Virus record (IMG/VR): IMGVR_UViG_3300047552_000160
Span: 1-41,264 of that record
DNA: 41,264 bases
Origin: a virus
Strand: one strand, 5' to 3'
Position numbers and translations under genes: made by a program
Notes under the pieces: model-generated
Database searches by the model: none
What the model was told of the DNA's origin: nothing
Seen by the model: only the letters and a program-made list of their open reading frames with translations
Shown: positions 7,879-31,209 of the stretch, piece after piece
Position numbering within the stretch: the first letter of the stretch is position 1
Layout: every line of letters begins with the position of its first letter

Positions 7879-8991
7879 TTATTCAAAACTGAACAAGTCG
7901 TCGAATGTCGAATTGACATCTGTATTTTCACGGAGATCCCAATTCAGTACTGATAGCATATTCTCAACTTTTTCGTCGAGTAGCACACGCTCCATCTCAA
8001 GTTCATCAAATGGTAATTCAATGAACCATTGTGGTAAGCGCAATTGATCTACTGGATAAGCAATTGAGGTAATACCAAGTGGATTGTCTCGTAATTTGCA
8101 AACAACAATCTTCATGCCATCTACGATAGATTGACTGTAGTTGTCACCATTCATCTTCTTTAGGTAGTTCCAGTTAATGGAGGCACGCACATGTCCTGGC
8201 ATATTTACCTTGCCGTTGCCTTTGCCTGAATTTGCCTTCTCCAACTGGGTGGCATAATCATTCAATCGCTTAACGCCTTTTGGTGAGCCCTTGGTCCATG
8301 CATCCATCTCGCGTAACTTTTTCTTAAATTCACGAATCTTACCAATGATGACTTCTTTATCATCACCGTTCAGCACGTTATCAAGAATTTCTGCCAAGAA
8401 TACTTGAACATACTTTGGCGTATCACTACGCTTCAAATCAAGACCCATAGCTTTGATATCACCACGTTTGCCGTCTTTATCTTTGCGTTTGCCTTCTTTG
8501 TCGTAGATATTTACCGCGTACTTTTTCTTTTTAATGAACAGTCCACGGTCAGCTACAATCTCTCGACCAGCTTTAATAATCTCACCATTTTTACGAGGAC
8601 AATGGAATGAACGTTCCATCATTTCTGGGAATGATTGGTTAGTTTGCTCAGCCAGCTCATCGTAGATTTGAACCGCAGTCTCTTTGTTCCAGTTCTCCAT
8701 AAGGGCAGGGTTCTGCTTCAACATAGGTATCGCTGTGAAGTAACAGGAATTATGAACAAGGATATCGTTGCCAAAGAACCAGGGTTCGTTTTCATTACGC
8801 ATACCGATGTCATATACGTATTGTTCTCCAGCATCTTCTAGCTTTCTAATACTCTTCACTGGCGCTCTGCTCAGTGCGATTACGTGCCCTGACACAATCT
8901 CTTTAGCAGATGCATCATAGGTATCCACCTCCTCGTTTAGCAATTCAGTTAGTGTTTGTTTTAATTCTGCTGGTGTTATTTTAGTAGCCAT
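7879..8991 (-). CDS. 43: Split-intein C-half fused to C-terminal part of DNA polymerase gp43
   Basis: Residues 1-81 are the C-terminal half of a split intein. Block F-like (EQYVYDIGMRNENEPWFF) and block G (GNDILVHN) precede the splice junction HN|S. Residues 82-370 are the C-extein: SCYFTAIP continues motif C (YGDTD|SCYFTAIP), then come IKKKKYAVNIYD and KAMGLDLKRSDTP, the thumb, and a C-terminal FDDLFSF that resembles the gp45-binding tail of T4 gp43 (SLDFLFG). Trans-splicing to the piece encoded at 10068-11069 would join palm and thumb. Its start overlaps the endonuclease gene by 16 bases. Confidence 0.93.
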   Translation of the reverse strand: MATKITPAELKQTLTELLNEEVDTYDASAKEIVSGHVIALSRAPVKSIRKLEDAGEQYVYDIGMRNENEPWFFGNDILVHNSCYFTAIPMLKQNPALMENWNKETAVQIYDELAEQTNQSFPEMMERSFHCPRKNGEIIKAGREIVADRGLFIKKKKYAVNIYDKEGKRKDKDGKRGDIKAMGLDLKRSDTPKYVQVFLAEILDNVLNGDDKEVIIGKIREFKKKLREMDAWTKGSPKGVKRLNDYATQLEKANSGKGNGKVNMPGHVRASINWNYLKKMNGDNYSQSIVDGMKIVVCKLRDNPLGITSIAYPVDQLRLPQWFIELPFDELEMERVLLDEKVENMLSVLNWDLRENTDVNSTFDDLFSFE

Positions 8992-10064
8992 TCTTTTACT
9001 TCCGTTATTGTTTGTATTGGGTTAGCCAAATAATCAGCTTCCCATACAGTCTTTACCTCGAAGCCCCTGTCATTGGCAGTTTTGGTCTTCATCTCGTCTC
9101 TTAGCCAAATATCAGCAGCTGTCTTATTTGTAACAGTATTAACAAATGTCGCATCGTATTTCTTAGGATTACAGTGCCAGTAATCACCATTAAATTCAAC
9201 TATTTTATTCCTAGTCGTGTCAGTTGCATCAAAGAATACTGGTGCGTCTAATAAGTTACTCCACATAGCGAACTGTCTAGTCTTGGCAGTATACTTAATC
9301 TGCTCACCTAAAGCAACCTCAAGGTTATCCAAAAACTCTAATTCCAACTTACTAGATGAGTTTATTGGTCTTCTTTTGGATATAATCTCTTCAGCTTCAG
9401 CTTGAGTGACGCCATATTTTTCTTGAATATAATCTATGCGATTAGAATTTCCCTTTTGATAGTTATACTCTTCCCACAATCGTTTACCATCATCGCCGTA
9501 CTTCTCTTCATAGTACTCAAGTGTGTTTGTATATCGCTGCAACTCCAGATAGTTATTCCACATCTCGTTTCCTAGCTCATCACCATGACGCTCTATACAT
9601 TTCTCCAGCGTCACTGCTCTTGATTTATTGAAGTCATCAAAGTCTTCGCGGGTGTATCCAAATTTCTTCTCTTTATATTCAAATGTATTGGTTTCGGATT
9701 GTAGTGATACGTATCGAGCCCATTTTTCTTTACCAATCGCTTCGCCGTACTTCAGAATCATACCATTTTCGGTAATACCAGTAGACTGTTTACAAGCATC
9801 TGATACTATTGGAGCATCTGGGAAGGCTTCAATATATTCTGATAACGTTCTAGGGACATTGCACCCATGCATAACATGTGATGATGTTATCCTATTGAAC
9901 TTTTTGTGACATTCAGCACATTCAATCTTAGGCGCGCTATCAGAAACAGAACGTCTTGTAGACGCCCGTTCCCGTTCTCTTAATATGCGCTCAAATTCAA
10001 TTTTGCCACGCTCTTCGCCATACTGCTCAATGCACTTGGCCAAGCTCTTCTTAATACCTGCCAT
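8976..10064 (-). CDS. Vsr-like homing endonuclease nested in the split intein
   Basis: 362 residues. An N-terminal CAEC...H...C zinc-finger-like module near residues 48-85 is followed by SEYIEAFPDAP, as in MucR-type fingers. The centre holds several repeats of the form CIERHGDELGNEMWNNYLELQ / YGDDGKRLWEEYNYQ that may be DNA-binding modules. The C-terminal domain has the very-short-patch-repair-like core: KLELEFLDNL, FFDATD, KIVEFNGDYWHCNPKKYD, RDEMKTKTANDRGFEVKTVWEADY. This matches the homing endonuclease family known from fractured, split-intein-bearing phage genes. It lies exactly between the intein halves, three bases after the N-half stop, and overlaps the C-half start. Confidence 0.9.
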   Translation of the reverse strand: MAGIKKSLAKCIEQYGEERGKIEFERILRERERASTRRSVSDSAPKIECAECHKKFNRITSSHVMHGCNVPRTLSEYIEAFPDAPIVSDACKQSTGITENGMILKYGEAIGKEKWARYVSLQSETNTFEYKEKKFGYTREDFDDFNKSRAVTLEKCIERHGDELGNEMWNNYLELQRYTNTLEYYEEKYGDDGKRLWEEYNYQKGNSNRIDYIQEKYGVTQAEAEEIISKRRPINSSSKLELEFLDNLEVALGEQIKYTAKTRQFAMWSNLLDAPVFFDATDTTRNKIVEFNGDYWHCNPKKYDATFVNTVTNKTAADIWLRDEMKTKTANDRGFEVKTVWEADYLANPIQTITEVKEWLLK

Positions 10065-10067
10065 ATA

Positions 10068-11069
10068 TTACGAATTCAACTTATGTCTTAATGATATCAG
10101 GATATCAGTAGGATTAATATCGGTTGGTTTAACCTCAATTAAATTACCATCACGCTCAACCATAATCGAGTGATCTTCTGTGACAGTTATGGTATTGCCA
10201 TTAGCATCTTCAATCTCATAGAGGCTTTTAGACACTTGATGGCGATAGATATATTCAACGTGTCCGAAGTATGGTTCTTGCCGTTCAGAATGATAGCTCA
10301 TCACCAGCAATCCGTCATCACCGGCATACTGCTTTGTTCCATCTTCCCAGAACTCAGAACATGAATCAAACAATTCGCCGATCTGAACATCGCCTTTGTT
10401 AGTTCTGATAATCGTCGAACCAACCACCGAGTCAGTATCCCCGTAAATTATTGCGTCACCAGTGTGATCATATTCACCACAGATAGCTTCGTTTAAATGA
10501 GCAGACATATGTTTCACAATCTGTCTACCTGATAGCGTGGTAGATTGACCAATACGCTTATCGTAGAATCTACAATGTTGATTTAATAATGCTCCGTCTC
10601 GATGTTCAGATATGTTAGCAAAACAAATCCCGTATGTCATCGACATACTGCTAATGCTTTCACATTAGAACAGACTATATCACAATCTGCAACTTAGTTA
10701 CAGATTCCCGCCGTTTCGGCAATCATACGCTTATTGCCTACGTCCATATGGACTAGTCGTTGAACCTTCGATATCAAATATCGCTTGGCTGCTGATTGTC
10801 TTTGCCATTACGCAGTAAGAGTTCCCAGCAATTAGACGGGTTTTCAATACACATTACTGTGTAAGGGCGCTACACATTAACGCACTGTTGAGCAAAATCT
10901 TTCTTACCAATTGCCGAGAGTCAAAGTATTCTCGCGCATCTTCAATAATCTGCTTAGTAGCGACTATCTTATTGTCTACCATTGTTAATGAATGAACCTT
11001 CATATAACTGGCCAATGTTTTTAAATCATTTGATTTTATTAAACTTCGTATGTGTTCAATGTCTATCAT
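10068..11069 (-). CDS. 43: Middle piece of DNA polymerase gp43, interrupted by a group I intron and fused to a split-intein N-half
   Basis: Read as join(11069-10880, 10597-10068). Exon 1 (190 nt, ATG at 11069, AAAGGAG upstream) encodes the end of the fingers through RKILLNSA plus one base. Exon 2 supplies AC GGA, making NSAYGALLNQHCRFYDKR, the conserved motif B. Removing 282 nt keeps the frame and yields 239 residues. The last 120 residues are the intein N-half, starting at Ser (TCG, 10430-10428) after YGDTD: block A-like SVVGSTIIRTNKGDVQIGEL and block B TVTEDHSIMV. The unspliced frame starting at 10646 begins inside the intron and is not the real protein. Confidence 0.9.
10598..10879 (-). 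ncRNA. Group I self-splicing intron in gene 43
   Basis: A 282-nt intron, read on the minus strand. P1: exon GCGU plus intron UA pairs with UAGCGC (10872-10867), with U·G at the 5' splice site. Core elements appear in order: P (AATTGCTGGGAA), Q (AATCAGCAGCCAAGC), R (GGTTCAACGACTAG) and S (GATATAGTCTG). GCUG/CAGC forms P4, UUGA..ACC with GGUUCAA forms P3, and GACUA/UAGUC forms P7. A P9-like hairpin CTAATGT-GAAA-GCATTAG with a GNRA loop follows. The intron starts TAAT, as T4 introns do, and ends in G. It has no internal ORF. Confidence 0.93.
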
Positions 11070-11070
11070 G

Positions 11071-11256
11071 TTACTCCTTTAATTTATTCATAGTGAATCC
11101 TAATTCCCTAAATGTTTTACCAGTATATAATTTGCAAAAGGCGTGGCATTCAGGAGTCTGATTGAAGTGTGGATTAGGTACCACAAACTCTAATAAACTA
11201 TCATCTCTTGGACCGCCATAGAATGGAAGTTCAGGAACACTATCCTCCACGTCTTG
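11071..11256 (-). pseudogene. In-frame continuation of the HNH endonuclease after an amber codon
   Basis: Immediately after the TAG that ends the HNH gene, the same frame stays open for 61 more codons and ends with TAA one base before the ATG of the next gp43 piece. The translation looks like genuine protein (DVEDSVPELPFYGGPRDD..., then CHAFCKLYTGKTFRELGF) and fills the whole gap. The simplest reading is a mutated (for example TGG to TAG) or suppressible stop inside a 388-codon endonuclease gene. A small internally started peptide is less likely. Confidence 0.6.
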
Positions 11257-12237
11257 CTAACTATAATATAAGTTGTTTTTATATCCTATCACATAAATTT
11301 TATCGATACTAGCGCCGTGTTTTATATATCTGGGATCTGGTAACTTTTCTTCTTCGATCATAACGTAGCATTTATCTACGATGTCCAATCGTTTTACTAG
11401 GTTTGAATGATTCAACTTAATATATCCCGCATTGACATAATTTGGTCCTCTGCCCAAGACATATCCTTCTGGTATATCTTCAAGTTTACATCTTACGTTT
11501 TTGCCTGTCAATGGATCATGTGTCCATTTATACTCTTTAAGGGCGTCTGACCCATTGTTGAACCACGGTGGCGCACCCTTAGTGAACCCTTCCTGTATTT
11601 CGTGTTCGAATAATACTTCTTTGGTCTCCTCGTTATATTGCCATATTCTTCCACGATTTGAATCTCCTACTTTAGCACGGGAATCAACACTACGTTCTCT
11701 GCCCGTCTGGAATGGTTCCCACCCAGCAGGCTGCTCGTCAACTTTATAGCGTTTAAGTTCACCGGTAGATTGGTTACGGTAAATGTTCGTTCCGGAATGA
11801 ACCCGAGATAGGTTCTCACGCTGAGTATCTGACCTCTTTTGACCAGTATTCAGCTTACTAAATTCGATTGCTACTGCAATTCGAACTTGTTCGTAATATC
11901 TAGTGCTGAAGAAGCCGTTGTCAGTCGGCACTCGACCACACATCATATTAAATGCGAATACACATGCGGAATGATCTATGGATTTGAACAGTAAATAGTG
12001 CGCAATCAAATGTGCTTTAACTGGTAGTTTAACCTTATTCCAGTATTCCTTACCGTATTCTGGCCAAATTGCCTCTGGTAGAATATGATGTGACTCTACT
12101 GCACCTGGAGCATCTTTGGACTTTTTCAGAGCCATACCCTTATAGGTCATCATTAATTTCAAGTAGCGTTCAAAGTGATGTGTGTTTTTTATTAACCCAG
12201 CAGCTTCAAAACATTTGCGGAACTCATCTATGTTCAT
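11257..12237 (-). CDS. Free-standing HNH homing endonuclease inserted in gene 43
   Basis: 326 residues with an HNH nuclease core near residues 48-75 (ESHHILPEAIWPEYG, then NKVKLPVKAHLIAHYLLF), where HHILP and the later Asn/His residues form the beta-beta-alpha metal site. The middle carries TGQKRSDTQRENLSRVHSG, typical of NUMOD-like DNA-binding modules in phage HNH enzymes. It starts four bases after the stop of the gp43 N-terminal piece and separates it from the middle piece. It ends at an amber codon with an open continuation. It is unrelated in sequence to the two HNH genes at 23.8 and 30.6 kb. Confidence 0.85.
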   Translation of the reverse strand: MNIDEFRKCFEAAGLIKNTHHFERYLKLMMTYKGMALKKSKDAPGAVESHHILPEAIWPEYGKEYWNKVKLPVKAHLIAHYLLFKSIDHSACVFAFNMMCGRVPTDNGFFSTRYYEQVRIAVAIEFSKLNTGQKRSDTQRENLSRVHSGTNIYRNQSTGELKRYKVDEQPAGWEPFQTGRERSVDSRAKVGDSNRGRIWQYNEETKEVLFEHEIQEGFTKGAPPWFNNGSDALKEYKWTHDPLTGKNVRCKLEDIPEGYVLGRGPNYVNAGYIKLNHSNLVKRLDIVDKCYVMIEEEKLPDPRYIKHGASIDKIYVIGYKNNLYYS

Positions 12238-12241
12238 GACT

Positions 12242-13933
12242 TTAATTATCTAAATATTTCTTCAATTCATCAGCAACACTTTTATCTAGCGTGATGCCAG
12301 TCTCAAGGTCACTGACCATTTTAAGTTGTTTCTGAATACTCTTTCGTTCACTGTACCACTTTGTTAATAGACCAGGAATAATTCCCTCATACTCGTAGGT
12401 AAAGATAGTGCCATTAGCGCTCAGCATCCATGGTTGATTACTATCAAAGATCATCTTCCAGACTTGCGCAGCCGATGCTTCGTCGCTGCCACCAGTTTCC
12501 CAGTCGATAGTCAACATGGTACCTCGCTCTTGGTTCATCACTGCGGCATATTCAAGTGAACCGAACAAGCCTTCCCATAAGATAGCACCAGTAACGCCAT
12601 CAACTTCACCATCAACAAATTTGTTCTTCTTCTTTTCTTTTGCTAAACGTTGACCTTTTTCATGCATATACTGGTCAGTAAGCGTGGGACGGAGTTGGCC
12701 GATGATCGTCTCAGGTGCCATGTTAAGTGCACGGATGACTGATGGGTAGAGTGAGTTAATGTCAACTGCTCCGATCCATTCGTGAATACCTGTTTTGGGC
12801 GTAGCAACATAGGCACCTGCCGCTTGTGATTCGTCATCTGAATTACCTCTCTTTTTATCTGGGACAATTAAATCTCTTGAATGTGCTTCATTAATAACAG
12901 CTTGCTCTACCATGGCAACAGTACCCATTACTGTTTGTAGTAGTACTGTGTTTTGATGAGCCAGTTGATTCGCCAAGTCTAAGAATTTACGCTTAGCATG
13001 AATCTTATATACCAGCATAGTATCTTGACGGTTGTACTCTAGGAATTTCTTCCAGTCTTTATTATACAACTGATCAAGGGTGCCTTCGTATTGTGTTTTA
13101 TTTTCACCAACTTCTAGTTCACCAATCACGTCTAGTTTATAAGAGTGACGTGGTTCAAACATATACTTGCGATATAGGTCAAGATAGTCAAAGTGAACAC
13201 GACCAATCAGGTCATAAGTCTCTTGCTCGATGCCATACATCTCGTACTTGCGAGTCTTTGGTAATTGATTTAACAAACAGAATCGGCGAGTATCATCACG
13301 ACTCATGATTCGCGTAACACGATTTACCATGTACGGAATGTCATAGCCTGATGAGTTCCAACCAGTTAAGATGTCTGCGTCTTCAATCAAGTCAAAGAAT
13401 GTGGTAAACATCTCTGCTTCATCATAGAAGATGAATGTATTTTCAAATCCATCAGCAATCTCGGTCGCTGTTTCTTTTGACATGTGTGTTGGTGGAATAC
13501 AAAGGGTGACCAGCGTATCGCTCCAATCTAAGTACAGCGAGATTGCTGTTACTTTGTTGAATGGATCTGTGGTGGGACTAAAGCCCTTTTCAGGGTCAAA
13601 ATCCACTTCAATGTCAAAGAAGCATGTTTGTAACTTAGGCGCAGCTTTGCCTAGGTAGTTGTCAGCGAGACATCGCACTACTGGTGATACATCACTCTCA
13701 AAGATTCCCTTGTTCGAATGCAGTCTGACTTCTTTTTGGAATTCAGAGTACTTTCTTGTGGTAAATTTTGACAGGGATTCACCAGTAATACTGCGATACT
13801 TGCCTTTTTTATCGCCGAAGTAGAATGTGTAATTTGCTGGGTATGTCATGTACTGACGTTTACCAGCAGCGTCACGTTCTACGACGACGATTTCATCTCG
13901 CTCTTTGTTGTGTAAGGCATCAATGTAACTCAT
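12242..13933 (-). CDS. 43: N-terminal part of DNA polymerase gp43 (exonuclease and motif A)
   Basis: 563 residues. The 3'-5' exonuclease motifs are present: Exo I FFDIEV (D107, E109), Exo II GWNSSGYDIPYMVNR (D198) and Exo III YNRQD (Y300, D304). Polymerase motif A is DINSLYPS (391-398). The chain stops in the fingers (ADELKKYLDN) before motif B, which is encoded by the next piece. T4 gp43 is a single 898-residue chain; here the three exteins total about 971 residues. There is no intein at this break, so the two parts would have to assemble non-covalently. The start has no clear SD and lies just after the DsbA-like gene. Confidence 0.94.
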   Translation of the reverse strand: MSYIDALHNKERDEIVVVERDAAGKRQYMTYPANYTFYFGDKKGKYRSITGESLSKFTTRKYSEFQKEVRLHSNKGIFESDVSPVVRCLADNYLGKAAPKLQTCFFDIEVDFDPEKGFSPTTDPFNKVTAISLYLDWSDTLVTLCIPPTHMSKETATEIADGFENTFIFYDEAEMFTTFFDLIEDADILTGWNSSGYDIPYMVNRVTRIMSRDDTRRFCLLNQLPKTRKYEMYGIEQETYDLIGRVHFDYLDLYRKYMFEPRHSYKLDVIGELEVGENKTQYEGTLDQLYNKDWKKFLEYNRQDTMLVYKIHAKRKFLDLANQLAHQNTVLLQTVMGTVAMVEQAVINEAHSRDLIVPDKKRGNSDDESQAAGAYVATPKTGIHEWIGAVDINSLYPSVIRALNMAPETIIGQLRPTLTDQYMHEKGQRLAKEKKKNKFVDGEVDGVTGAILWEGLFGSLEYAAVMNQERGTMLTIDWETGGSDEASAAQVWKMIFDSNQPWMLSANGTIFTYEYEGIIPGLLTKWYSERKSIQKQLKMVSDLETGITLDKSVADELKKYLDN

Positions 13934-23790: not shown

Positions 23791-24495
23791 CTAGACGCCA
23801 GCCTTTGTCTTATGTTTACATCTGTCACCATGCCATCTGCCATAATTTCCAGTACCAATTCCAATAGCCCCACAATGTTCACACGTCCATTGTTGATGCG
23901 ATGGGTGAGTGCCATTAGCTAGCTGTCTCTTTACTGATTGAGTAAAGACATGCGTTCCGGCGACTGATCTAGCAAGTTGATAATTTCGCTGAATACCTCC
24001 ATCTAATAAATGATGTGTGCCATCATCTATTTTCGCTTGCTGAACAGATCGTTGATATGAACCATCACCGACCCAAAGATGCTCACCGCTTTTGACTAAT
24101 CGAGTTTGTGTCTCTGATTGTAATTGGCCGCCAACCCATGGATGTCTACCCTCATCGAGCAATCTTTGACTTCCTTTTTTGCCGTTTCTACTCTGAACGT
24201 CTTTGTTCTGCCAAGGGTGGGTTCCCGCCGCCAGATGTTTTGCTGCTGAAGCTTTGGCCAGCCTAGACTTCTCTTCTGGACTAATAGCCATTCGCACTGA
24301 CATAACTAAGCAAGCATCGAAGTCTCCTTGACTATGATGGATATCGTAATGTTGCTGGATTGATACTGCCATCAAATTGGATGGGTCATTGTTTGAATGG
24401 TCACCATCAATATGATGGATTTCGTATGTCCGGCCATCTTCATCTTTGGGAATAAGGCCATAGTGTTGTTCATAAATTTTTCTGTAATTTGCCAT
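23791..24495 (-). CDS. HNH homing endonuclease with repeated NUMOD-like modules
   Basis: 234 residues. The N-terminal HNH domain (YEIHHIDGDHSNNDPSNL, H27-H28, then QQHYDIHHSQGD) is of the NUMOD/HNH type. The middle has about six short repeats each containing G-x-H followed by W or L (GTHPWQNK, GRHPWVGG, GEHLWVGD, GTHHLLDG), which are typical DNA-contact modules. The C-terminus is a CEHC...H...C zinc-finger-like element. It has a perfect -10 promoter and its own terminator, making a self-contained cassette between the glycosyltransferase and peptidase genes. It is a paralogue of the gene at 30622-31209. Confidence 0.88.
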   Translation of the reverse strand: MANYRKIYEQHYGLIPKDEDGRTYEIHHIDGDHSNNDPSNLMAVSIQQHYDIHHSQGDFDACLVMSVRMAISPEEKSRLAKASAAKHLAAGTHPWQNKDVQSRNGKKGSQRLLDEGRHPWVGGQLQSETQTRLVKSGEHLWVGDGSYQRSVQQAKIDDGTHHLLDGGIQRNYQLARSVAGTHVFTQSVKRQLANGTHPSHQQWTCEHCGAIGIGTGNYGRWHGDRCKHKTKAGV

Positions 24496-25682: not shown

Positions 25683-25776
25683 TTAGGAGTCAGTATGTCC
25701 AATTTGTCGGTGGTCTATCTATCCTTGGACTGATACTCTGGACTCTATATTAGTATCGTCACGAGTGTCGATAACT

Positions 25777-29827: not shown

Positions 29828-30625
29828 TTAAATTCCCTTTGATTTATTAACTTCTACTTTGATTGCTTCAAGTAGCTCGTCGCTGATTGTATCAGGTGCT
29901 ACTCCCTGTAACAAAACAAATTGGTTACCTTTGAAGCCATTTGCTTCTAAGCCGCGGCCTGCTAATCTTAGGGAAGCGCCACTGTTTGTCCTTGGCGGCA
30001 CTGTTGCTTCTAGTTCGTCACCCCAGATTGTGGTAACTTTGATGGTAGTACCAAGGAGGAGTTCAAACACCGATAGCTTGCGAGTGCAGTATAAGTCTAG
30101 TCCACGGCGTTCTAATTCTGGATGTGGACGCACTCTGAATTCAACTTGCAAGATGCCATCTGGCATAATACCATCGTAGCGAACATTCTGTCCAGTCTCT
30201 ACGTTCTTTGGTACATTGATTTGAATTGTTTTTGGTCCTGTTGGGCCTTGAATCTGAACAGTAACCGAATCACCAGTTGCAACTTGTTTGAGTGTGACTT
30301 CTACCGCAACAGTATAGATCCGTTGGCGCTGCTGGTTGAATTGCCGGAAGATATCATCGAATGGATTGCCGCCACCAAAATTGAAATGAAAGTCCCCAAA
30401 TGGATTTTGACCACCTTGACCGAATGGGCTCGGGTTATCATGTTGTTGCTTTAATTGTGGGTCGCTTAGATTGCGATATGCTTCCTCAACCTCTTGGAAC
30501 TTGGCGGTATCTCCTCCTTCGCGATCAGGGTGATACTTAGCTGCCATCTTGCGATATGCTTTTTTGATTTCTTCTGGAGTGGCGTTGCGCTCTACTCCTA
30601 GTGTTTTGTAATAGTCCATAGTCAT
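29828..30625 (-). CDS. dnaJ: DnaJ/CbpA-type co-chaperone
   Basis: 265 residues. A J domain (1-65) with HPD at 32-34 is followed by a Gly/Phe-rich linker (PFGQGGQNPFGDFHFNFGGG) and the C-terminal peptide-binding domains, without the cysteine-rich zinc domain, as in CbpA-type (class II) proteins. It would stimulate a host or phage DnaK. The ATG overlaps the HNH stop as ATGA (30622-30625); a second ATG two codons later is possible. It is followed immediately by clpA, forming a chaperone/unfoldase pair. Confidence 0.92.
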   Translation of the reverse strand: MTMDYYKTLGVERNATPEEIKKAYRKMAAKYHPDREGGDTAKFQEVEEAYRNLSDPQLKQQHDNPSPFGQGGQNPFGDFHFNFGGGNPFDDIFRQFNQQRQRIYTVAVEVTLKQVATGDSVTVQIQGPTGPKTIQINVPKNVETGQNVRYDGIMPDGILQVEFRVRPHPELERRGLDLYCTRKLSVFELLLGTTIKVTTIWGDELEATVPPRTNSGASLRLAGRGLEANGFKGNQFVLLQGVAPDTISDELLEAIKVEVNKSKGI

Positions 30626-31209
30626 TCTTGTTTGTGTTTACAGTATTTACGGTGATGCTGAACTTCATTGCTCACGCCGATACCCTCTTTGCCACAATCA
30701 ACACACTTCCATTTGCGCTGATTCATGTGGGTCCCTGCCTCTAACTGTGCTTGTTGAACGTCTTTAGACATTGACGTGCCGTCGTCACGCTTGAGGAAGT
30801 TATGTTTACCAGCGACCACTGTATCACTCGATACTGAGGTACCGTCTGGTCGTTTTAATAAATGGTGTGTCTTATTAGCAAGTCGGCGCTGATTACTTGC
30901 GGATTGTATCTTGCCTCCAACGAGATTAGCAGTCCCTGCTTCCACTCTCTTATTGTGAGCCAGTTTTGCTAAGCGTCTTATCTCTTCTGGTGATTTACCC
31001 ATTCGTTGAGCCATGATAAGACAAGCTCTCACATCACCCTGAGATTCGTGTATGGCGTAGTGTTCAGCCAATGGTACTGCTTTTAGATTCGAAGGTTCAT
31101 TATTCGAATGATTGCCATCGATATGATGGACATCATAAGTCCTACCGTTCTCTTCTCTCGGTATTGGTCCATAATGTTGTTCGTAGATTTGTCTATGTTT
31201 AGCACCCAT
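30622..31209 (-). CDS. HNH homing endonuclease, paralogue of the 23.8-kb gene
   Basis: 195 residues. The N-terminal HNH domain YDVHHIDGNHSNNEPSNL...EHYAIHESQGD matches the gene at 23791-24495 almost residue for residue, and the C-terminal KCVDCGKEGIG...H...CKHK finger also corresponds. The middle modules differ (TANLVGG, KTHHLLKRPDG, GKHNFLKRDDG), as expected if target specificity has changed. It has its own TTGACT-18-TACACT promoter and overlaps dnaJ, so it has been inserted upstream of the dnaJ-clpA pair. Confidence 0.88.
   Translation of the reverse strand: MGAKHRQIYEQHYGPIPREENGRTYDVHHIDGNHSNNEPSNLKAVPLAEHYAIHESQGDVRACLIMAQRMGKSPEEIRRLAKLAHNKRVEAGTANLVGGKIQSASNQRRLANKTHHLLKRPDGTSVSSDTVVAGKHNFLKRDDGTSMSKDVQQAQLEAGTHMNQRKWKCVDCGKEGIGVSNEVQHHRKYCKHKQE

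What the first reader, a model, noticed from the sequence alone, without database searches (positions are those of the whole stretch)
7879..13933. DNA polymerase gene broken by an HNH gene, a group I intron and a split intein in one locus
Gene 43 lies in three separately translated pieces: exonuclease plus motif A; the end of the fingers, motif B and the start of motif C; and the rest of motif C plus thumb. A free-standing HNH gene separates the first two, a group I intron cuts motif B, and a split intein with a Vsr-like endonuclease cuts motif C. Split gp43, phage group I introns and fractured split-intein genes are each known. All three layered on one essential enzyme, with the intron and intein inside two catalytic motifs, is to my knowledge unusual. 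The polymerase would depend on RNA splicing, protein trans-splicing and chain assembly.
Basis: partly seen in the sequence, partly recalled or inferred. Interest (0 to 1): 0.96.

Follow-up and report, generated by a model that had tools for sequence, protein, structure and literature searches.

The report
Phage DNA polymerase split three ways
A bacterial virus's DNA-copying enzyme is encoded in pieces separated by three kinds of mobile genetic element, an arrangement already on record in phages of a fish pathogen but built here from different parts, with a hint that one DNA-cutting gene and a self-splicing intron travel as a pair.

Summary
No second PolB was found on a near-identical 149,889-nt contig, which may be incomplete.

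The combination is not new: Aeromonas phages Aes508 and Aes512 are deposited with gp43A / GIY-YIG gene / group I intron + N-intein / VSR gene / C-intein. Three other IMG/VR lineages have it too. Here the parts differ: HNH instead of GIY-YIG, another intron position in motif B.

New here: the intron is present in all 6 HNH lineages that could be checked, versus 1 of 5 lineages with other inserts at the same spot (p=0.015, not corrected for relatedness); the intein varies independently. In relatives, the fingers-tip coding sequence is exchanged together with the endonuclease gene. I read this as an HNH-intron pair like the collaborative homing proposed for phage 25. The window's HNH gene has an in-frame amber codon that relatives lack; the sister contig encodes a CUA tRNA. 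Splicing, cleavage and assembly are untested.

The parts
12242..13933 (-). gp43A: exonuclease domain, motif A, start of fingers
   Evidence: Pfam/PHROG hits
11071..12237 (-). Free-standing HNH homing endonuclease gene, interrupted by an amber codon at 11259-11257; 59-aa ORF 11250-11071 is its C-terminal part
   Evidence: PHROG 655; relatives L171, L189, L192 group, L196, L199 have one ORF of 392-402 aa covering both
10880..11069 (-). gp43B1 exon 1: fingers tip and first part of motif B
   Evidence: homologous tip ORFs in relatives; strong ribosome-binding site AAAGGAG read upstream
10598..10879 (-). Group I intron, 282 nt, no ORF of its own found
   Evidence: RF00028 96.7 bits; covariation over 7 introns; empty site in relatives
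10428..10597 (-). gp43B1 exon 2: rest of motif B to YGDTD of motif C
   Evidence: PF00136; alignment
10068..10427 (-). N-intein, 120 aa, starts at Ser
   Evidence: PF14890 E=2.6e-9; PDB 9hth E=1.1e-14
8976..10064 (-). Vsr-like endonuclease gene between the intein halves
   Evidence: PHROG 22677 E=4.5e-51; homologues annotated VSR in Aeromonas phages
8749..8991 (-). C-intein, 81 aa, ends VHN, next residue Ser
   Evidence: (weak, E=0.096)
7879..8748 (-). gp43B2: rest of motif C and thumb
   Evidence: PHROG 1918 E=7.9e-47

Best explanation
Gene 43 of this T4-type phage carries three kinds of mobile element at its most conserved or most tolerant spots. (1) A free-standing HNH endonuclease gene splits the gene in the fingers tip, so gp43A and gp43B are separate chains that must assemble. 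(2) A group I intron without its own endonuclease sits in motif B and must be spliced from the gp43B1 message. (3) A split intein with a Vsr-like endonuclease gene between its halves sits at motif C and must trans-splice to join gp43B1 and gp43B2. The mature enzyme would be two chains, gp43A and joined gp43B. I propose that the HNH protein (in phages where it is intact) cuts intron-free gp43 alleles near motif B, so that repair copies HNH gene, neighbouring tip and intron together, and that the Vsr-like protein does the same for the intein. Shown: anatomy, empty sites, RNA fold, HNH-intron co-occurrence, block exchange of tip and endonuclease gene in relatives. Inferred: splicing, trans-splicing, cleavage, co-transfer, assembly.
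For: Intron model hit and covariation. The seven nearest relatives (L010-L013, L015, L016, L038; one clade with the window phage, support 1.0) have none of the insertions. HNH scan: 12 loci; L200 ends inside HNH; the other 11, in 6 lineages, all carry the intron (Rfam on them or on other loci of the same contigs). Lineages with another insert in the tip: intron in 1 of 5 of the 144-locus set (Fisher p=0.015). Intein independent: L192 group, L196 and L199 have HNH and intron without it. L121 and L196 agree in gp43 (polN 86%, polC 94%) and intron (86%) but differ in the endonuclease gene and in the tip on both sides of it (5/20 and 8/41 identical, against 17/21 and 41/45 for L171-L196). Relatives work in the laboratory: phage 25 43A and 43B co-purify with polymerase activity (PMC2988022, passages); the Aes123 PolB1 split intein trans-splices, about 30% efficiently before engineering (PMC11923092, passages).
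Against: The window's own HNH gene has an amber codon and may be dead. Six lineages are few, were found by an HNH search, and four of them lie with L121 in one clade, so they are not independent. HNH and intron identities also track the polymerase itself (Spearman 0.76-0.91), so vertical descent explains part of the association. Aeromonas phage Aes007 has a different HNH gene in its split gene 43 and no intron. Aes144 and Aes516 have intron and intein without an endonuclease gene in the split, so the intron persists alone. No RNA, protein or cleavage data. The C-intein half scores weakly in Pfam (E=0.096).
Confidence: 0.75

Rival explanations
1. The three elements are independent passengers; HNH gene and intron co-occur only because both were inherited together, or because both favour the same gene, and the HNH protein does nothing for the intron.
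For: Spearman correlations of HNH and of intron with polN and polC are high; four HNH lineages share a clade; L121 has the intron without the HNH gene; Aes007 has an HNH gene and no intron.
Against: HNH lineages also occur in two distant clades (window, L194 group) whose close relatives lack both; other tip inserts rarely go with the intron (1 of 5).
Confidence: 0.35
2. Gene 43 is broken here: the locus is decaying, and the phage uses another polymerase.
For: The HNH gene has an amber codon; the complete genome is not in hand.
Against: All polymerase motifs and intein residues are intact once joined; no stop in any polymerase piece; no other PolB and no PolA on the 149,889-nt contig.
Confidence: 0.05
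3. The tip and HNH gene were ancestral and were lost, with the intron, in the seven nearest relatives, rather than gained by the window's lineage.
For: A long tip without insert occurs in outgroup-like polymerases (Paride, L031, L113, L204 and others).
Against: 116 of 128 loci in the clade that spans the split forms have the short tip without insert, so loss would have to recur often.
Confidence: 0.25

Closest known systems
Aeromonas phages Aes508 (JN377894) and Aes512 (JN377903), gene 43
   Same: gp43A / free-standing endonuclease gene / gp43B1 with group I intron and N-intein / VSR gene / gp43B2 with C-intein, as annotated (intron by Rfam)
   Different: GIY-YIG instead of HNH; intron 9 nt further downstream by my reading of the junction; polymerase about 29% identical over the matched parts
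Aeromonas phage 25 gene 43 (AY303350) with its seg gene and intron 25.g43B
   Same: split 43A/43B, free-standing endonuclease gene, intron without endonuclease predicted to depend on it (PMC2993671, passages)
   Different: no intein; GIY-YIG endonuclease
Pseudomonas jumbo phages MIJ3 / PA5oct / Paride, PolB split intein
   Same: split intein at YGDTD|S with an endonuclease gene between the halves; N-intein 48% identical to Paride's
   Different: no fingers split, no intron found in Paride's locus
Aes123 PolB1 split intein (PDB 9HTH)
   Same: best solved relative of the N-intein (E=1.1e-14); natural split intein of a phage PolB
   Different: Aes123 intein is cysteine-less, the window's N-intein has one Cys; C-intein 81 aa here, about 39 there (PMC13014065, passages)
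SPbeta nrdE and Campylobacter phage IBB_35 terminase gene
   Same: intron and intein in one phage gene (PMC3322345, PMC3653736, passages)
   Different: no fission of the gene by a free-standing endonuclease gene told there; other enzymes

Membership tests
Group I intron (RF00028) | core sequence and fold above the curated score | tested here: met
   96.7 bits, gathering 50, model 1-253; covariation above all 500 shuffles
Group I intron (RF00028) | U.G at the 5' site, terminal G, self-splicing | tested here: inconclusive
   U10880.G10870 and terminal G 10598 can be read; splicing itself not testable
Split intein (PolB, motif C) | nucleophile at 1, TxxH, C-terminal His-Asn, nucleophile at +1, halves in separate ORFs | tested here: met
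   S1, TEDH, HN, S+1 read; PF14890 E=2.6e-9 for the N half, only 0.096 for the C half
Split intein (PolB, motif C) | trans-splicing | not testable with these tools
   shown in print only for the Aes123 relative (PMC11923092, passages)
T4-type gp43 PolB | exonuclease and motifs A, B, C in order once joined | tested here: met
   predicted structure of unsplit relative L031 matches RB69 gp43 (E=1.3e-41), model pTM only 0.42
HNH homing endonuclease | HNH residues | tested here: met
   H50, H51, N67, H76 invariant over three homologues; PHROG 655; no Pfam hit
HNH homing endonuclease | intact reading frame and DNA cleavage | tested here: not met
   frame cut by an amber codon 61 codons before the end of the homologous stretch; cleavage not testable
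Collaborative homing | free-standing endonuclease cuts the intron-free site | not testable with these tools
   co-occurrence only
Fractured gene with Vsr-like endonuclease (Dassa 2009, recalled) | Vsr-like gene between split-intein halves | tested here: met
   gene order; PHROG 22677; homologues annotated VSR; no Pfam Vsr hit

The most novel reading that the evidence does not exclude
HNH gene, fingers tip and motif-B intron form one composite mobile unit: homing replaces a short unsplit tip by a foreign long tip plus endonuclease gene plus intron, so that a piece of an essential enzyme is itself mobile and fission of its gene comes along. In this phage the endonuclease may further be throttled by amber read-through.
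Probability: 0.4. Interest if true: 0.7.

Novelty: new variant of a known kind. Interest (0 to 1): 0.5.

Why it matters
The three-break gene 43 on record in Aeromonas phages recurs in distant phages with other parts, at slightly different positions of the same catalytic motifs. That makes gp43 a good place to test whether free-standing endonucleases mobilise introns that lack their own, and whether they carry host protein sequence with them. The HNH-intron pair gives a defined prediction of what should be cut. The split inteins are possible protein-ligation tools.

Tried and rejected
A second intron around the HNH gene: Rfam finds one group I intron in the window and one on the sister contig. 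The 59-aa ORF as a gene of its own: rejected, it is the HNH C-terminus. Recoding of TAG: gene ends give no clear support. An intron 3' end just before the ATG at 10646 or 10640: rejected, since the relatives continue with YGALLNQHC. Aes007's HNH gene as the same family: only a core match (38 residues, E=1.7e-4), so not counted with the six lineages, but told as a case of an HNH gene without intron. AlphaFold of L031: mean pLDDT 72, pTM 0.42, used only for the general fold and for the place of the tip between two fingers helices. In one search ex1 of L199 and ex2 of L196 and L199 were wrongly cut out; values from them are not used (the ex1 and ex2 correlations of that call neither), and L196, L171 and L121 were done again. 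Literature searches: (CC0, CC BY and CC BY-SA papers only). In their listings and in the passages that I opened I saw no description of all three breaks in one gene 43; papers not held may have it. The precedent rests on GenBank annotation and my Rfam runs.
Full report
What is there. The window is a 41,264-nt IMG/VR virus record. Gene 43 lies on the minus strand as gp43A (13933-12242), an HNH gene (12237-11257), gp43B1 with a 282-nt intron (11069-10068), a Vsr-like gene (10064-8976) and C-intein plus gp43B2 (8991-7879). A second record of 149,889 nt holds the whole window at 99.978%, with two mismatches and one gap, so two records agree.

Break by break. The intron matches RF00028 from end to end with 96.7 bits. 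Seven related introns support one fold: 94.2% of cells paired and 44 of 76 pairs with a two-sided change, neither reached by any of 500 shuffles; slid controls pair 31-43% of cells. The fold was derived from the same alignment, and the slide control is known to favour such folds. Splicing 10880 to 10597 yields motif B as KILLNSAYGALLNQHCRFYD, as in six uninterrupted relatives. Unspliced, exon 1 meets a stop nine codons after the motif B serine. The N-intein begins at Ser in YGDTD|S; its best solved relative is 9hth, the Aes123 PolB1 intein. The joined product YGDTDSCYFTAIP is as in uninterrupted relatives. The first break is in the fingers tip; in the predicted model of the unsplit relative L031 the tip lies between two long helices (mean pLDDT 72, pTM 0.42, so of local use only), and the model matches RB69 gp43. 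I found no intein or second intron at this break, so two chains must assemble.

Is an intact copy elsewhere? On the sister contig the three PF00136 matches are these pieces, PolA was not found, and the one intron match and the one intein match are here. The contig is not known to be complete.

The HNH gene. Its 326-codon frame ends in an amber codon; the next 61 codons, with the 59-aa ORF, stay in frame and resemble the C-terminus of relatives, whose ORFs have 392-402 codons. Intact copies exist in the five other lineages. The sister contig has one tRNA by ARAGORN, anticodon CTA. Amber is still used as a stop there, at a rate not clearly below that of relatives (4 of 103 ORFs of 150 aa or more, against 118 of 1615; P=0.12; by another gene model 3 of 143). 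Either the gene is inactivated or it is read through; I cannot tell.

Relatives. With GenBank loci, 277 loci from L005 to L281 were compared; 236 cover over 75% of the polymerase core and 144 remain below 97% identity. Eleven of the 144 have a large insert in the tip. The smallest clade with all 11 holds 128 loci: 116 short-tip, 11 split with long tip, 1 long-tip without insert (L031). The window phage's seven nearest relatives (78-84%) have the short tip and no insertion. Parsimony on the tree (midpoint root) needs 8 changes for tip inserts, 4 for the intron and 13 for the intein; the direction, gain or loss, is not settled.

HNH and intron. The HNH alignment scan returned 12 loci. One ends inside HNH (L200). 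The other 11, in 6 lineages, carry the intron; Rfam was run on eight of them and, for L191, L198 and L201, on other loci of the same contigs (L009, L171 and L189). Of the 5 lineages of the 144-locus set with another tip insert, 1 has the intron (L121) (Fisher p=0.015, not corrected for relatedness). L207, outside that set, has a tip insert and no intron by Rfam. Three HNH lineages have the intein and three do not. Rfam was run on 59 fetched loci in 62 entries (L128, L136 and L207 twice), with 20 hits (2, 0, 6, 8, 4). For other loci the absence of the intron rests on the distance between exon sequences where both flanks were found, 11 of 186 loci could not be measured.

Against this: four of the six HNH lineages and L121 lie in one clade; HNH and intron identities follow those of polN and polC (Spearman 0.89 and 0.89, 0.76 and 0.91); Aes007 has another kind of HNH gene and no intron; Aes144 and Aes516 have intron and intein with no endonuclease gene in the split.

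Positions. The intron sits at one of three places within 12 nt of motif B: in the Leu codon of NSLYG (L171, L196, L189, L199, L121), in the Tyr codon of NSAYG (window, L192 group), or after YGA in the Aeromonas phages (junctions of relatives are my reading, chosen to restore the motif with U before and G at the end of the intron). The intein sits at YGDTD|S (window, Paride, L121) or YGD|TDS (L171, L189, L148, SCTP-2).

Block exchange. L121 and L196 are close relatives with alike introns but different endonuclease genes. Their identity collapses on both sides of the endonuclease gene (5/20 at the end of gp43A, 8/41 in the first 45 residues of gp43B) and returns before the intron; L171 and L196, which share HNH, stay alike (17/21, 41/45). 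This fits exchange of tip and endonuclease gene as a block. It is one case; in it the intron was kept, so it supports linkage of tip and endonuclease gene, not of the intron. L121 also matches L171 better than L196 just before the intein (13/13 against 7/13), as co-conversion around an intein would give.

What is known. PMC2988022 (passages): split gene 43 of phage 25 with a seg gene, co-purifying active 43A and 43B, and collaborative homing. PMC2993671 (passages): the phage 25 gene 43 intron lacks its own endonuclease and is predicted to use a free-standing one. PMC6892783 (passages): MIJ3 split PolB intein. PMC11923092 and PMC13014065 (passages): trans-splicing by the Aes123 PolB1 intein and engineered forms. 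PMC3322345 and PMC3653736 (passages): introns and inteins in one phage gene. GenBank records of Aes508 and Aes512 carry all three breaks. Aes517 has them with a truncated GIY-YIG gene; Aes120 and phage 25 have GIY-YIG gene and intron; Aes123 has the split gene and the intein with its VSR gene, without intron or GIY-YIG gene.

Verdict. New variant of a known kind, interest 0.5.

Noticed in passing
window 11259-11257 and 11250-11071: In-frame amber codon in the HNH gene; the 59-aa ORF behind it is the rest of the same gene. Intact copies exist in relatives.
   Followed up: yes
L284:13148-13222 (sister contig): A tRNA gene with anticodon CTA, the only tRNA ARAGORN finds on the 149,889-nt contig; possible amber suppressor.
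   Followed up: partly
window 23791-24495 and 30622-31209: Two further ORFs with alike N-termini and an HHIDGxHxNN pattern, HNH-like by eye (no database search); the first is one of two TAG enders among 43 gene models picked by hand.
   Followed up: no
L121:3880-4872, L083:4119-5018, L128:4329-5198: Endonuclease-like ORFs (by eye) lying antisense in the fingers tip of gene 43.
   Followed up: partly
L148:3382-5079: A 565-aa ORF in the same fingers-tip position, no intron.
   Followed up: no
L171, L189, L148, L006 against window, L005, L121: PolB inteins at two positions two codons apart in motif C (YGD|TDS and YGDTD|S).
   Followed up: partly
window near 25740: The window and the sister contig fall out of register here; their single gap (7 nt net) must lie nearby.
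   Followed up: no
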